Source: Actinomycetota bacterium (lineage in GTDB: Bacteria; Actinomycetota; Actinomycetes; Nanopelagicales; Nanopelagicaceae). From it: DNA of 46,321 nt. The notes beneath the pieces were generated by a model, which worked only from the letters and a program-made list of their open reading frames with translations, did no database searches and had not been told where the DNA came from. The stretch is taken from assembly GCA_026392825.1 (NCBI GenBank), contig JAPLBF010000002.1, positions 1 through 46,321 on the forward strand, in the 5' to 3' direction. The position numbers and the translations under genes were made by a program. The first letter of the stretch is position 1. Every line of letters begins with the position of its first letter. Below are positions 12,551 through 46,321 of the stretch, piece by piece.

Positions 12551-12581
12551 AAGGACTGTAAAAGGCTTTTCCCCAGTCCTT
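12551..12581 (+). terminator. Hairpin after Fe-S protein gene, possible terminator
   Basis: AAGGACTG (12551-12558) pairs perfectly with CAGTCCTT (12574-12581) around a 15-nt loop that itself contains AAAAG/CTTTT. There is no T run after the stem, so intrinsic termination is uncertain. Confidence 0.45.
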
Positions 12582-12604
12582 AGCGAGAATTCCTTATTCT
12601 GGAG

Positions 12605-12626
12605 TTATCCACAGAACTTGTGCACA
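12605..12626 (+). other. Pair of DnaA boxes outside the origin
   Basis: TTATCCACA (12605-12613, perfect) and TTGTGCACA (12618-12626, fits TTDTNCACA) lie head to tail, 13 bp apart, in the short gap between the Fe-S protein gene and the rhomboid gene. They could be a DnaA titration site; see findings. Confidence 0.55.
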
Positions 12627-12635
12627 GGTGTGTAT

Positions 12636-21371: not shown

Positions 21372-21750
21372 GCGGTTGCCCTCAGTTTCTTTAGTTGAAA
21401 GTCTTTCATGTTGATAGAAGAGTTAGATAGTCCAAAAAACAGGTTTGAGGCTGTGTGGTTCGTTTGGACGCGGGTTTTCTGTATATATAGGTAGTAGTAG
21501 TAACCAACCAATATAACTGTGGATAAAGTTAAAAAGCCCTGCTCAAAGGCGTGTTTTCTTGTTAAAAAGGTGTGGATAAACAAGGTTAAACTGTGCACAA
21601 AACCCTGCAACATAACCCACCTCCCCTCTCTATTTTAAAAAAAGCTAAAAGAAAAACTTATTAACCACAGATTTACCGCTGCAATCCACAGTTATCCACA
21701 CCTTCTCCACAACTGGGGGTAAGGTTCTTAATTCGGACATTTAACCGAAA
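21372..21750. other. Putative oriC in the dnaN-dnaA intergenic region
   Basis: This 379-bp gap has no gene. DnaA boxes on the minus strand: TTATCCACA at 21518-21526 and 21571-21579 (both perfect) and TTGTGCACA at 21592-21600. On the plus strand: TTAACCACA 21661-21669, CAATCCACA 21682-21690, TTATCCACA 21692-21700 (perfect), TTCTCCACA 21703-21711. The last three are tandem with 10-11 bp spacing. AT-rich DNA occurs at 21629-21664 and at 21482-21489. dnaA-dnaN is the known oriC position in actinobacteria, and flanking genes diverge away from here. Confidence 0.88.
21482..21526 (-). other. DnaA-trio-like unwinding element of oriC
   Basis: On the minus strand the order is DnaA box TTATCCACA (21526-21518), 14 nt, four TAC trinucleotides (21502-21491), then TATATATA (21489-21482). 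This matches the basal unwinding layout known from B. subtilis, where DnaA bound at a box extends onto repeated trinucleotides and melts the adjacent AT tract. Assignment is by pattern only. Confidence 0.65.
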
Positions 21751-23163
21751 TTAACCTCTGTTCTGAGATTTAATCCGGTTAGTTAACTCTGTGACTTGGT
21801 TATAGATAGATCGGCGCTCTGCCATTAATTGGCGGATCTTCCGGTCGGCGTGCATAACAGTTGTGTGATCGCGGCCCCCGAAAGCTTGCCCAATCTTAGG
21901 TAGCGATAACTCAGTTAACTCGCGGCACAAATACATCGCGATCTGGCGGGCGTTAACTAAAACGCGAGAACGAGAAGTGCCACATAAATCATCGATAGTT
22001 AGGCTGAAGTAAACGGCGGTCTGAGCCATAATCGTTGCGCCAGTGATTTCAGGACCAGCGCCACTTGGGATCAAATCTTTCAAAACAATTTCAGCAAGAC
22101 CTAAATCAACACCTTGTCGGTTAAGGCTTGCGAATGCTGTAACACGAATTAGCGCACCTTCAAGTTCGCGAATATTTGTAGAAATTTTGCTGGCGATATA
22201 TTCGAGTACATCATCAGGCGCATTTAATTTATCTTGCGCAGCTTTCTTACGAAGAATAGCGATACGAGTTTCTAATTCTGGAGGTTGGATATCTGTAATC
22301 AAACCCCACTCGAAACGTGAACGTAGACGATCTTCCAAAGTGGTTAACTGTTTTGGGGGACGATCAGATGAGATAACGATTTGTTTATTGGCGTTATATA
22401 AAGTGTTAAAAGTGTGGAAGAACTCTTCTTGGGTGCGCTCTTTATTTTCTAGGAACTGAATGTCATCAACCAACAGAACATCAAGGTCGCGATAACGGCG
22501 CTGGAATGCCGAAGCTTTATCGTCGCGAATCGAGTTAATAAAGTCATTTGTGAACTCTTCAGATGAAACGTAACGAACCCGCACACTGCCATATAACTCT
22601 TTGGCGTAAGCGCCAATCGCGTGTAATAAGTGGGTTTTTCCAAGTCCGGACTCACCATAAATAAACAGTGGGTTGTATGCCTTCGCTGGCGCTTCGGCCA
22701 CTGCAACTGCCGCGGCGTGCGCGAAACGATTTGATGCACCAATAACGAAAGTTTCAAAGATATAGCGAGGATTTAATTGTGATGGCTCATCGCTTTTGCG
22801 GGCACCAAGATCAGAACCTTCACGACCCGTGCCTGGGCGAGTAGGTGTTGGTTCAATAACAATAGTTGGGGCCGGGTGATCTGCGAGTTCGAGTGACTCA
22901 TCAACCATCACGGCGATATTTGTTTTATCGCCAAGCTCGCGAGTTAGAACTTCATTGACAACAATTCGTAAACGAGATTCGAGAACATCTTTAGCAAACA
23001 CATTTGGCGCAGCAACTAACAAATTTGTGATGCCGCCATCGCTTTGAATCAACCCAAGAGGTTTGGTCATTGTTAAGAAGGCGCGATGTTGGGGTTCTCC
23101 GAGTGAGACATGCTCAATAACTCGATCCCAAAGATCAGCGAGTTCGATCTCAACAACAGCCAT
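21751..23163 (-). CDS. dnaA: Chromosomal replication initiator DnaA
   Basis: AAA+ initiator of 470 aa that binds DnaA boxes and melts oriC. Domain I is at the N terminus ([20 protein letters not shown]), then a Pro-rich linker. Domain III starts [22 protein letters not shown] with Walker [16 protein letters not shown], Walker [11 protein letters not shown] and sensor SSDRPPK. The domain IV DNA-binding signature is [18 protein letters not shown] 23163 follows a G-rich ribosome site. The upstream gap carries DnaA boxes overlapping a promoter candidate, pointing to autoregulation. Confidence 0.98.
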
Positions 23164-43473: not shown

Positions 43474-43518
43474 ATGTGGGTGATTGCGAAAGTAGTAAAA
43501 CAGTGTCAGGCTTGTGTG

Positions 43519-45192
43519 ATGAAGAGAGATAAAATAAAAAAGACTACAAATTTTTTATTTGCTGCAGCCCTTGCGCTTTCTCTTCTATCACCGACAGTAG
43601 CCGCCGCCGCAGTCAAGGCGGGTGGGCCATGCAACAAAGTTGGCCAAGTAGCTACTCAGTCTGGAAAAAAATACACATGCATTAAGAGTGGAAATAAAAA
43701 AATCTGGAATAAAGGAGTTTTGGTTACCAAGGCTGTTCCGGTTCCAACTCCAACTCCAACTCCAACGCCTGCGCCAACTCCTACGATCGACCCAAATAAA
43801 CCAAAACAGGGTCAAAGCTGCCTGAAAAATTCTCAAGATGTAATTGGGTACAACAACCAACTCAAACTAGTAGCGCTGATGTGCAACCAATTCGATGACA
43901 GATATTTCCCTCGTGAAGGGGCCGATGAGGTCGATCAAAGCACTGGTAAATTCAAAAAAGGTCCAATGCAACAAACGACACCACTCGTTGAGTGGAAAGA
44001 GCCTGTAGTAATCAGTACGCGACCAAAAACTGAGATCTCCAATTCGAGCTCACTGGCCGACATTTCTGCTTGCAAGATTGCTGATGCTGGAGCCGTAGGC
44101 GCAATGCCAAGTTATATTCAACAACACTTTGTTTCTGGCTTTGGCTTATATGCAGAAAGAGCGCCGCTAACTCGAAACCCCGTGATCCAATTTGTAACGA
44201 TTGATTTTCCTGATTTGCAAGGTAAGAGAAGCCCTGCCGAAGACCTCAAAGAAGTTACTGATTTTCTTGGAAAATACTGGAGTTCGCAGGTTACAAACCC
44301 AATTACCTTAGATTTTAAAATACCAAGCTCATATATCCGAATGCCGCTAAAGGTAGTGGACTACGGGATGAATATAGATTTCTTCTCTCCAGAATGGCGT
44401 CCAAATACTGCCTTTGATTACGTTCGTGCGGCGGTTAAAGTAGCAGACCCAACCATTGATTTCGCTAAAGCAGATGTCATGGTGATTGCAGTCCCGGCCG
44501 AAGTAACGCGTGCGCAAGTGGCAGCATTTATTGCAGAATCTAGCGAGGCCCGCTTTCCGAATCAGGGATTTCAAACCAGTGAGAAGAAGATTATGAACAC
44601 CCTAGTGATGGCAGGTGCTACTGGCAGTAAAGCTCACGAGTTATTTAACTGGGCTCATGAATTAGGTCATAATTTTGGTTTAACCGATCTTCGAAATACT
44701 CAGAATAAAGCGATGCAGGATCCCTCTGATCTGGGGATTTATGACTTAATGAGTTCCCCGCTAGCTCCAGAACTTTTAGCTTGGAATAGATTTATCGTCG
44801 GTGGGTTAAATGACAATCAGGTTAGATGTGTTTCATCTGGCTCGACAACACATTTAATCAGGCCGGTGGCGATGCCAACTAAGGAAGAAAAGTTAGTTGT
44901 AATTCCGACAGGAAGATTTACAGCGATAGCGGTAGAAAGCCGCAGAGCAATCGGTTTTGATTCTCCAATGGGCACAGCAAGTGAAGGCGTAATTGTTTAC
45001 GAAATCGACACAACCGTTCCTTTTGGACTTTCAACGATGAAGTTGGTCCCCCGAGTCGGTTCTACTGATAAACAATGGAGACGAGATTCAGCTCTTAAAA
45101 TTGGAGATGCGGTTACAACCCAAGGTTGGAAGATCACCGCTGTCGAGACCGGAGATTTTGGAGATGTGGTTAAGGTAGAAAAAATAGGTTAA
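43519..45192 (+). CDS. Secreted M6-like zinc metalloprotease
   Basis: With ATG 43519 the protein is 557 aa and begins with a signal peptide (KKTTNFLFAAALALSLLSPT, Ala-rich cleavage region). A small two-Cys module GGPCNKVGQVATQSGKKYTC follows, then a VPTPTPTPTPAPTPT linker and a second Cys-containing segment. The catalytic motif is H380ELGHNFGLTD390 (HExxHxxGxxD) with a Met-turn-like YDLMS at 408-412, as in immune-inhibitor-A-type and metzincin proteases. The frame is open to 43474, but that start overlaps the terminator. TTGCGA (43484-43489), 17 bp, CAGGCT, 6 nt, ATG supports the chosen start. It sits between rplI and dnaB, usually close neighbours. Confidence 0.82.
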   Translation: MKRDKIKKTTNFLFAAALALSLLSPTVAAAAVKAGGPCNKVGQVATQSGKKYTCIKSGNKKIWNKGVLVTKAVPVPTPTPTPTPAPTPTIDPNKPKQGQSCLKNSQDVIGYNNQLKLVALMCNQFDDRYFPREGADEVDQSTGKFKKGPMQQTTPLVEWKEPVVISTRPKTEISNSSSLADISACKIADAGAVGAMPSYIQQHFVSGFGLYAERAPLTRNPVIQFVTIDFPDLQGKRSPAEDLKEVTDFLGKYWSSQVTNPITLDFKIPSSYIRMPLKVVDYGMNIDFFSPEWRPNTAFDYVRAAVKVADPTIDFAKADVMVIAVPAEVTRAQVAAFIAESSEARFPNQGFQTSEKKIMNTLVMAGATGSKAHELFNWAHELGHNFGLTDLRNTQNKAMQDPSDLGIYDLMSSPLAPELLAWNRFIVGGLNDNQVRCVSSGSTTHLIRPVAMPTKEEKLVVIPTGRFTAIAVESRRAIGFDSPMGTASEGVIVYEIDTTVPFGLSTMKLVPRVGSTDKQWRRDSALKIGDAVTTQGWKITAVETGDFGDVVKVEKIG

Positions 45193-45314
45193 TTTAAAAT
45201 TTGACCCAATCTCAGCAATTGAGAAGTTATAAATTACTTTCATACACAGGGGTTAGGTATAAACACCCCACCGCTGACCTGCGCTTTCCTTAAAAACGAG
45301 CGGAATGGCGAAAG

Positions 45315-45390
45315 TTACCCACACCCCGCGCACAGGGATTTACACAGGAAAATGCGGTTATCCACCTAGTTATGCACACCCTTATCCCCA
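45315..45390 (+). promoter_or_regulatory. DnaA-box array upstream of dnaB
   Basis: Head-to-tail plus-strand 9-mers: TTACCCACA 45315-45323, TTATCCACC 45358-45366, TTATGCACA 45370-45378, TTATCCCCA 45382-45390. The last three start exactly 12 bp apart with 3-bp spacers. The array ends 42 nt before the dnaB start and lies in the 240-bp gap 45193-45432, where no gene is seen. Confidence 0.6.
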
Positions 45391-45432
45391 ACCGCCTTCG
45401 CTTATGTCAGCGCTAAGTGGGAGGTTTCACCC

Positions 45433-46321
45433 GTGAGTATCGCAGAACTACCCAATAGCTCCTCGCGAGCAAACTCTTCATATAACAACGTTGGGGCTGA
45501 ATTCGAGCGAACACCACCACAGGATTTAATCGCAGAACAATCTGTTCTCGGCGGAATGTTGTTATCAAAAGATGCAATTGCAGATGTAATTGAAATTTTA
45601 CGAGAACGCGATTTCTATCGCCCAGCACACGAACTTATTTATGATGCAGTTCTTGATCTCTATGGACGCGGTGAACCTGCAGATGCTGTAACTGTTTCTG
45701 CAGAGTTAACTAAGCGCGGAGATATTGCACGCGCCGGTGGTGCACCTTACTTACACACTTTAATTTCATCTGTACCAACTGCAGCCAATGCAAGTTACTA
45801 CGCAAAGATTGTGCGCGAGCACGCGATCATGCGCCGATTGGTTGAAGCCGGTACAAAGATTGTGCAACTTGGCTATAACGTAGAAGGCGAAGTCGATGAT
45901 GCTGTCGATCAAGCGCAAGCCGAAGTTTATGCAGTCACTGAACGTCGCAGCTCAGAAGATTATGTGCAACTTGCAACGCTGCTTCCACAAGCCCTCGATG
46001 AGATCGAAGCGATTCAAAAAGGTACTGGTATCGAAGGTATTAAGACTGGTTTCCGCGATTTAGATTTACTCACACATGGTCTACATCCAGGTAACATGAT
46101 TATTCTGGCGGCGCGTCCTGCAGTTGGTAAATCAACTCTCGGTTTAGATATCGCACGCCATGCATCTATTCATGATGGAAGGACTTCAGTTATCTTCTCA
46201 CTTGAAATGTCGCGCTCTGAAATCACAATGCGTATGTTGTCTGCTGAAGCGCGCGTTGGTTTAAATAATATTCGCGCCGGTCAGTTAAGCGATGAAGAAT
46301 GGTCGAAGCTCGCGCGCCGTA
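45433..46321 (+). CDS. dnaB: Replicative DNA helicase DnaB, 5' part
   Basis: Hexameric helicase that unwinds DNA at the fork; 296 residues are present and the gene runs off the window. It starts with GTG 45433, 8 nt after GGGAGG. The N-terminal domain reads PPQDLIAEQSVLGGMLLSKD, then RRLVEAGTKIVQLGYNVEGE, the linker helix, and the RecA-like domain with LTHGLHPGNMIILAARPAVG followed by KST (Walker A) and FSLEMSRSEITMRMLSAEA. No intein interrupts the Walker A, where some actinobacteria carry one. Confidence 0.97.
   Translation, partial: MSIAELPNSSSRANSSYNNVGAEFERTPPQDLIAEQSVLGGMLLSKDAIADVIEILRERDFYRPAHELIYDAVLDLYGRGEPADAVTVSAELTKRGDIARAGGAPYLHTLISSVPTAANASYYAKIVREHAIMRRLVEAGTKIVQLGYNVEGEVDDAVDQAQAEVYAVTERRSSEDYVQLATLLPQALDEIEAIQKGTGIEGIKTGFRDLDLLTHGLHPGNMIILAARPAVGKSTLGLDIARHASIHDGRTSVIFSLEMSRSEITMRMLSAEARVGLNNIRAGQLSDEEWSKLARR

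What the first reader, a model, noticed from the sequence alone, without database searches (positions are those of the whole stretch)
45315..45390. DnaA-box array with an exact 12-bp period in front of dnaB
Three 9-mers (TTATCCACC, TTATGCACA, TTATCCCCA) start at 45358, 45370 and 45382, all same strand, 3-bp spacers, with a fourth box-like site at 45315. A 12-bp step recurs upstream of dnaA (23179/23191), and 10-11 bp steps at oriC (21682/21692/21703). Regular tandem boxes favour a DnaA filament, so DnaA may control expression of the replicative helicase, coupling helicase supply to initiation. I know of no described DnaA-dnaB circuit of this form in actinobacteria.
Basis: partly seen in the sequence, partly recalled or inferred. 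Interest (0 to 1): 0.72.

Follow-up and report, generated by a model that had tools for sequence, protein, structure and literature searches.

The report
DnaA-box array before helicase gene dnaB
In front of the gene for the DNA-copying helicase sits a regularly spaced row of binding sites for the protein that starts DNA copying, also found in most sampled members of its bacterial class, which probably lets that protein influence helicase supply; a link of this kind is already known in mycobacteria and Caulobacter.

Summary
Three DnaA boxes start at 45358, 45370 and 45382, a fourth at 45315, all on the dnaB strand. In 432,623 bases sampled from this genome only oriC and this site hold three or more boxes in 69 bp. 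The array is conserved: 68 of the 70 nearest loci carry at least three same-strand boxes before dnaB, and 58 of 61 sampled out-of-family genomes of the class at least one (47 at least two). The 12-bp step is one tooth of a roughly 10.8-bp helical lattice shared with oriC. Box-to-box spacing is constrained; array-to-promoter distance is not. The promoter candidate is a conserved PafBC (DNA-damage) type element ending 6 nt before the start codon. Most likely DnaA oligomerises on the array and promotes dnaB transcription, with PafBC adding damage induction; DnaA titration is the main rival. The novelty claim fails in part: DnaA binds upstream of dnaB in Mycobacterium tuberculosis and M. smegmatis (PMC7738170), and Caulobacter dnaB is in the DnaA regulon. 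Apparently new: class-wide conservation, the lattice, the PafBC pairing. By-product: a DnaA-box cluster downstream of crgA in 28 of 29 class genomes examined.

The parts
45358..45366 (+). DnaA box TTATCCACC (array box 1)
   Evidence: the same variant is used around dnaA in the family (7 of 234)
45370..45378 (+). DnaA box TTATGCACA (array box 2)
   Evidence: weakest of the four by matrix (9.7); rare in the reference set (1 of 234)
45382..45390 (+). DnaA box TTATCCCCA (array box 3)
   Evidence: second commonest variant around dnaA in the family (24 of 234)
45315..45323 (+). DnaA box TTACCCACA, 43 bp (four lattice turns) before box 1
   Evidence: the 43-bp step occurs 35 times among the box pairs of 70 relatives
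45326..45334 (+). possible weak site CCGCGCACA, 11 bp after the 45315 box; speculative
   Evidence: GC[AG]CACAGG kept in L001-L004 and in the second dnaB contig of this assembly; but matrix score is -6.9, so the matrix speaks against it
45338..45346 (+). possible weak site ATTTACACA, 12 bp after the previous one; speculative
   Evidence: TACACAGG kept in L001-L004 and the second dnaB contig; matrix score only 0.3
45240..45248 (+). possible distal site TCATACACA, 75 bp (about 7 turns) before the 45315 box; speculative
   Evidence: 2 mismatches; matrix score 2.6; L002 has TTATGCACA at the same offset, -193
45405..45426 (+). PafBC-type core promoter TGTCAGCG-N8-GAGGTT, ending 6 nt before the dnaB start codon; leaderless transcript predicted (inference)
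   Evidence: TGTCAGTG-like core (6 or more of 8) in 70 of 71 loci (70 relatives plus window), NAnnnT at the fixed spacing in 69 of those 70; no sigma-70 consensus promoter found in 45150-45480
45433..46320 (+). dnaB, replicative helicase, cut by the contig end
   Evidence: PF00772, PF03796; TIGR00665 match below its cut-off because the protein is cut
21372..21750 (.). oriC, dnaN-dnaA intergenic region with the same kind of boxes
   Evidence: dnaN named by TIGR00663
23164..23502 (.). dnaA upstream (rpmH-dnaA) DnaA boxes with a 12-bp step
   Evidence: 12-bp step in 29 box pairs upstream of dnaA in 30 family loci
21751..23163 (-). dnaA
   Evidence: TIGR00362 521 bits, cut-off 344

Best explanation
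The stretch 45315-45390 is a DnaA oligomerisation array that controls dnaB in cis. DnaA binds the boxes head-to-tail on one face of the helix and forms a short oligomer just upstream of a weak, non-canonical dnaB promoter (PafBC type, probably leaderless), and most likely raises dnaB transcription; PafBC adds induction when single-stranded DNA accumulates. Shown here: boxes, their excess, their conservation in the sampled class, same-strand bias, lattice, the promoter motif and its fixed place at the start codon, presence of PafC and an adjacent WYL protein. Shown by others in mycobacteria: DnaA binding upstream of dnaB, lower dnaB expression with a variant that binds there less, partial PafBC dependence of dnaB induction. 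Inferred: DnaA occupancy here, sign of the effect (activation), leaderless start.
For: Box cluster shared only with oriC in the sampled 31% of the genome. 298 same-strand against 4 opposite boxes in 70 relatives; 0 of 2111 background windows with three. Class-wide: 154 boxes in the 400 nt before dnaB of 61 genomes against 3.1 on average for 100 permuted words (max 18); 6.31 per kb near against 0.79 per kb at -1000 to -400. Lattice in both sets; on distinct distances 0 of 5000 random sets reached it (class; family); boxes around dnaA mostly share it. The array stays next to dnaB although the rplI-dnaB gap varies from about 0.25 to 3.8 kb in the 62 of 71 loci where rplI was found. The nearest box starts 51 nt or more before the start codon in 70 relatives, so none overlaps the promoter motif, which fits an activator better than a promoter-occluding repressor. 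Published mycobacterial binding and expression data, Caulobacter regulon, partial PafBC dependence of dnaB in M. tuberculosis. PafC domain and adjacent WYL protein encoded here; the full motif precedes recA in this genome.
Against: No expression or binding data for this organism. Array-to-promoter distance (23 to 153 bp) is not helically phased once shared ancestry is removed (distinct distances p = 0.28, collapsed p = 0.87), so a fixed contact with RNA polymerase is not supported. dnaB lies about 21-94 kb from dnaA in the 22 out-of-family class genomes compared, so position alone cannot separate regulation from titration near oriC. Outside the family the published PafBC pattern was found before dnaB in only 5 of 61 class genomes and a relaxed one in 12 of 61 (0 of 61 in the control stretch). 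Another DnaA-box cluster, at crgA, lies next to gene ends, so such clusters need not be promoters.
Confidence: 0.62

Rival explanations
1. DnaA titration or reservoir site: the array buffers free DnaA near oriC and thereby sets initiation timing; its place before dnaB is mainly historical.
For: Array-to-promoter distance is free; dnaB stays near oriC in the genomes compared; a second conserved cluster lies 3' of crgA and of a rhomboid gene, not obviously at a promoter.
Against: The array stays with dnaB through insertions upstream; in M. tuberculosis a DnaA variant that binds less there under-expresses dnaB; a titration site needs no fixed strand, yet 298 of 302 family boxes are on the dnaB strand.
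Confidence: 0.22
3. The array is an auxiliary part of the replication origin.
For: Same box types and lattice as around dnaA; 60 bp of 73% A+T upstream in the window.
Against: That AT-rich stretch is not a family feature (bin means 0.52-0.59 A+T before the first box in 70 loci); the weak GC-skew change falls near 21-24 kb, at oriC; the boxes lie about 23 kb away.
Confidence: 0.04
4. Chance box-like words without function.
For: All four boxes are imperfect (one mismatch each to TTATCCACA).
Confidence: 0.01

Closest known systems
DnaA binding site upstream of dnaB in Mycobacterium tuberculosis and M. smegmatis (PMC7738170, passages read)
   Same: same gene, same protein, same class; also bound there: oriC and rpmH-dnaA, the other two box regions of this window
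   Different: box geometry, strand bias, spacing and conservation beyond mycobacteria are not in the passages read; there the site is given as Rv0057 (upstream of dnaB)
DnaA-dependent dnaB of Caulobacter crescentus (Hottes 2005; not read, known through passages of PMC8203912 and PMC7738170)
   Same: predicted DnaA boxes upstream of dnaB, DnaA-dependent expression
   Different: distant phylum; common descent of the site was not tested
E. coli oriC box arrays and Thermotoga oriC (PMC10316083, PMC4285127, passages read)
   Same: same-direction boxes suited to head-to-tail DnaA oligomers; helical phasing between boxes matters
   Different: those are origins; this one lies before a gene and uses 3-bp spacers in its core, whereas 2 bp was best in Thermotoga
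PafBC (RecA-NDp) promoters (PMC8151990, PMC6789036, PMC11804915, passages read)
   Same: TGTC[AG]G-N10-nAnnnT, directional, near the start; the full motif is also before recA here
   Different: first base of the -10 is G, not T, in 56 of 70 loci; no induction data here

Membership tests
DnaA-box cluster | several 9-mers close to the organism's own boxes around dnaA | tested here: met
   scores 13.8, 13.6, 12.1 and 9.7 (maximum 16.6)
DnaA-box cluster | clustering beyond chance | tested here: met
DnaA-box cluster | conservation in relatives | tested here: met
   three or more boxes in 68 of 70 nearest loci; at least one in 58 of 61 class genomes
DnaA-box cluster | DnaA binds it | not testable with these tools
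   shown only for the mycobacterial counterpart
DnaA-regulated gene | expression depends on DnaA | not testable with these tools
   M. tuberculosis and Caulobacter reports only
DnaA-regulated gene | fixed helical phase between boxes and promoter (not known to be required of every member) | tested here: not met
PafBC (RecA-NDp) promoter | TGTC[AG]G-N10-TAnnnT | tested here: inconclusive
   nAnnnT at exact spacing in 69 of 70 loci with the core; first T mostly G
PafBC (RecA-NDp) promoter | PafB and PafC encoded | tested here: met
   two adjacent WYL proteins, the second with PafC HTH PF19187; the first named PafB by position and appearance only
PafBC (RecA-NDp) promoter | damage induction | not testable with these tools
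   no expression data
oriC | strand-composition switch at the site | tested here: not met
   weak switch at about 21-24 kb, not at 45 kb
oriC | conserved AT-rich unwinding element beside the boxes | tested here: not met
   family bin means 0.52-0.59 A+T
datA/DARS-type site | effect on initiation or DnaA nucleotide state | not testable with these tools
   needs genetics

The most novel reading that the evidence does not exclude
Across the class Actinomycetes, dnaB carries an ancient cis module in which a same-face DnaA oligomer at a free distance from the start is paired, at least in the Planktophila family, with a PafBC start site, so that helicase supply is set jointly by initiator DnaA and by single-stranded-DNA stress; with oriC, the dnaA promoter and a crgA-linked cluster it forms a conserved four-site DnaA network around the origin.
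Probability: 0.35. Interest if true: 0.7.

Novelty: new member of a known kind. Interest (0 to 1): 0.5.

Why it matters
It suggests that the DnaA-dnaB link seen in mycobacteria belongs to a feature kept across its class and gives its geometry, so that initiator-to-helicase coupling can be tested by shifting boxes by half or whole turns. It also ties the same promoter, in the Planktophila family, to the DNA-damage regulator PafBC, and suggests that the M. tuberculosis DnaA site between Rv0010c and Rv0011c is an old, widespread element.

Tried and rejected
Helical phasing of the array against the promoter: looked strong on raw counts (R = 0.54 at 10.7 bp) but vanished when distinct or collapsed distances were used; rejected. 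Second-origin idea: rejected on AT profile and skew. Sigma-70 promoter scan of 45150-45480: none found. Weak in-between sites in the array: sequence is kept in the four nearest relatives but matrix scores are low; left as speculative. Other classes of the phylum: only 7 of 21 loci have any box near dnaB and 2 have two or more (these 21 were the best-scoring of 89 matching genomes outside the class, and one held only 38 nt upstream), so the feature looks specific to the class in this sample. Paper searches that found nothing; one search listed seven papers, of which I read passages of one and none of the rest. A 2006 report of Streptomyces DnaA-box clusters is recalled only and not held.

Errors of mine: read eight class loci and many phylum loci on the wrong side, and part 1 the same eight, because genome-search loci are not turned; one search repeats those counts with orientation fixed and replaces them. 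The family counts were first made on 79 loci and recounted on the 70 nearest. The lattice around dnaA was redone with orientation. The matrix was built before that; both sides of dnaA were pooled, so its use is little affected. Dropped rows: L059 (57 nt upstream) and L073 (no upstream DNA) from family counts; L308 (same genus) from the crgA count. Partial samples: 61 of about 110 out-of-family class genomes matched; 30 of 57 dnaA loci; 29 of 54 out-of-family crgA genomes; 30 of 33 rhomboid genomes.

Full report
What the window is. The window is contig C8 of a 1,378,533-base, 38-contig assembly. Its dnaB protein is 97% identical to that of Candidatus Planktophila lacus MMS-21-148; the genome search puts a genome of 1,460,061 bases, the length of that record, in the same genus. 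dnaB starts at 45433 and is cut by the contig end; dnaA is 21751-23163 on the minus strand, oriC lies between it and dnaN.

The observation. A weight matrix was made from 234 boxes (one mismatch or fewer to TTATCCACA) found on both sides of dnaA in 30 family loci; the commonest variants after TTATCCACA (93) are TTATCCCCA (24), CTATCCACA (23) and TTACCCACA (21), and TTATCCACC occurs 7 times, so three of the four dnaB boxes are ordinary variants; TTATGCACA is rare there (1). In 432,623 bases of this genome (about 31%) only oriC and the dnaB upstream region hold three or more matches in 69 bp. The exact word TTATCCACA occurs 9 times in the whole assembly, 5 of them around dnaA; TTWTNCACA occurs 55 times.

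Conservation in relatives. Seventy-nine named loci (L001-L080 without L073) were read 260 nt upstream of dnaB. Of the 70 nearest with enough upstream DNA (L001-L071 without L059), 68 have three or more same-strand boxes and the other two have two; together 298 boxes on the dnaB strand and 4 on the other. Of 2111 background windows of 260 nt from these 70 loci none has three boxes on one strand; three have two on the plus and four have two on the minus strand. The eight more distant named loci (L072 and L074-L080; Sporichthyaceae bacterium, Ruania twice, Occultella, Phytoactinopolyspora, an unnamed actinomycete MAG, Cellulomonas, Jiangella) have 0-2 boxes under this matrix, which is tuned to the AT-richer family.

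Class-wide. With a generic word TTRTCCACA (one mismatch allowed), 61 of about 110 matched out-of-family genomes of the class (22 loci and 39 stretches) hold 154 boxes in the 400 nt before the aligned dnaB start, 6.31 per kb, against 0.79 per kb at -1000 to -400 and against a mean of 3.1 (maximum 18) for 100 permuted words. 58 of 61 have at least one and 47 at least two; in an equal stretch further up 1 of 61 has two. 120 of the 154 are on the dnaB strand. In 21 loci from other classes of the phylum, 7 have at least one box and 2 have two or more.

The lattice. Distances of up to 60 bp between same-strand boxes fall only at 9-12, 20-24, 31-34, 42-46 and 53-57 in the 70 relatives, and of up to 70 bp only at 11-13, 21-24, 32-34, 44-45, 53-57 and 64-68 in the class sample. 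Taking each distance once, none of 5000 random sets of the same size reached the observed regularity in either set. Over all pairs the best period is 10.75 bp (family) and 10.8 bp (class); taking each distance once it is 11.2 and 10.9. Boxes around dnaA in the family mostly share the lattice (21-bp step 41 times in the dnaA-dnaN region, 12-bp step 29 times upstream of dnaA; some pairs, such as 27, 36 and 38 bp, fall off it). Relatedness is only partly removed by counting distinct distances. Literature read in passages says that same-direction boxes support head-to-tail DnaA oligomers and that part-turn changes between oriC boxes are harmful while a whole turn is not.

The promoter. A TGTCAGTG-like word (6 or more of 8) lies near -28 from the start codon in 70 of 71 loci (70 relatives plus the window), and NAnnnT follows after exactly eight bases in 69 of these 70, leaving in nearly all 6-7 nt to the start codon. 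This is the PafBC motif as given for M. tuberculosis, TGTC[AG]G-N10-TAnnnT, except that the first base of the -10 is usually G. The genome encodes two adjacent WYL proteins, the second with the PafC HTH domain, and the full motif TTGTCAGTG-N8-TAnnnT lies about 165 bp before recA; in the sampled 31% of the genome it was otherwise seen at the second dnaB copy and at two places without a suitable gene start. The fixed distance to the start codon suggests a leaderless transcript (inference). Outside the family the published pattern was seen in 5 of 61 and a relaxed one in 12 of 61 class genomes, against 0 of 61 in the control stretch.

Array and promoter. The nearest box starts 23 to 153 bp upstream of the promoter motif. 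Raw distances look phased, but not once repeats by descent are removed (p = 0.28 and 0.87). I take this as evidence that the array works as a unit at a flexible distance, and against a fixed-contact model. The nearest box starts 51 nt or more before the start codon in all 70 relatives, so none overlaps the motif. The array stays next to dnaB while the gap to rplI varies from about 0.25 to 3.8 kb through inserted DNA (62 of 71 loci with rplI found), which speaks for a function tied to dnaB.

Mechanism. Best reading: a DnaA oligomer on the array favours dnaB transcription from a weak PafBC-type promoter. The sign rests on others' work: in M. tuberculosis DnaA pulls down the region upstream of dnaB, M. 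[quoted passage not shown] Caulobacter dnaB is in the DnaA regulon with predicted boxes (PMC8203912, passage). In M. tuberculosis dnaB induction is partly PafBC-dependent (PMC8151990, passages). DnaA titration is the main rival and cannot be excluded; dnaB stays about 21-94 kb from dnaA in the 22 out-of-family class genomes compared (circular wrap-around assumed for some), so location does not decide.

Novelty. The circuit is of a known kind. Not found in print in my nine searches (open-licence PMC papers only; passages read of nine papers, the rest seen as listings): the class-wide conservation, the helical lattice at dnaB, and the pairing with a PafBC start site.

By-product. A different DnaA-box cluster lies downstream of crgA in 28 of 29 class genomes examined (71 boxes in 350 nt downstream against 5 in 350 nt upstream), in several as two direct boxes 12-13 bp apart with an inverted one about 10 bp on. 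In the family three or more boxes lie within 400 nt beyond the rhomboid gene in 17 of 30 loci, one in 5 and none in 8; crgA is the next gene in one family locus checked by Pfam and in six others by eye. PMC7738170 reports a palindromic DnaA site between Rv0010c and Rv0011c with no obvious counterpart in other species; that Rv0011c is crgA is recalled.

Noticed in passing
window 12567-12627; L257-L283; L285-L314: A second conserved DnaA-box cluster, direct plus inverted geometry, lies between the ppiA-rhomboid genes and crgA; downstream of crgA 28 of 29 class genomes examined have boxes. It may be the counterpart of the M. tuberculosis DnaA site Rv0010c-Rv0011c. In the window crgA is not the neighbour; the assembly's own crgA is on C24:20331.
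   Followed up: partly
G000:C24:28394-29281 (L141): The assembly holds a second dnaB with its upstream region, 86-93% identical in DNA over two aligned pieces, lacking the inserted metalloprotease gene; probably a co-binned relative. Its array keeps boxes 1 and 3 and the TTACCCACA box; box 2 reads TTGTGCACA.
   Followed up: partly
window 43474-45192: A 572-aa protein resembling M6 metalloproteases (TIGR03296, 61.8 bits, below its cut-off of 110.8) is inserted between rplI and dnaB; of 71 related loci searched, relatives were found upstream of dnaB in L029, L060 and (a short stretch only) L061.
   Followed up: partly
L155:13520-13542: PafBC motif TTGTCAGTG-N8-TAnnnT about 165 bp before recA.
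   Followed up: partly
window 1-46321: GC skew changes sign near oriC but is mostly positive to its left and mostly negative to its right on the + strand, the reverse of the usual pattern (recalled), and weak.
   Followed up: no
L003, L008, L010 and others: Several MAG records titled Bifidobacterium breve, Streptomyces griseus or Streptomycetaceae carry a dnaB 81-96% identical to this Planktophila one and look mislabelled.
   Followed up: no
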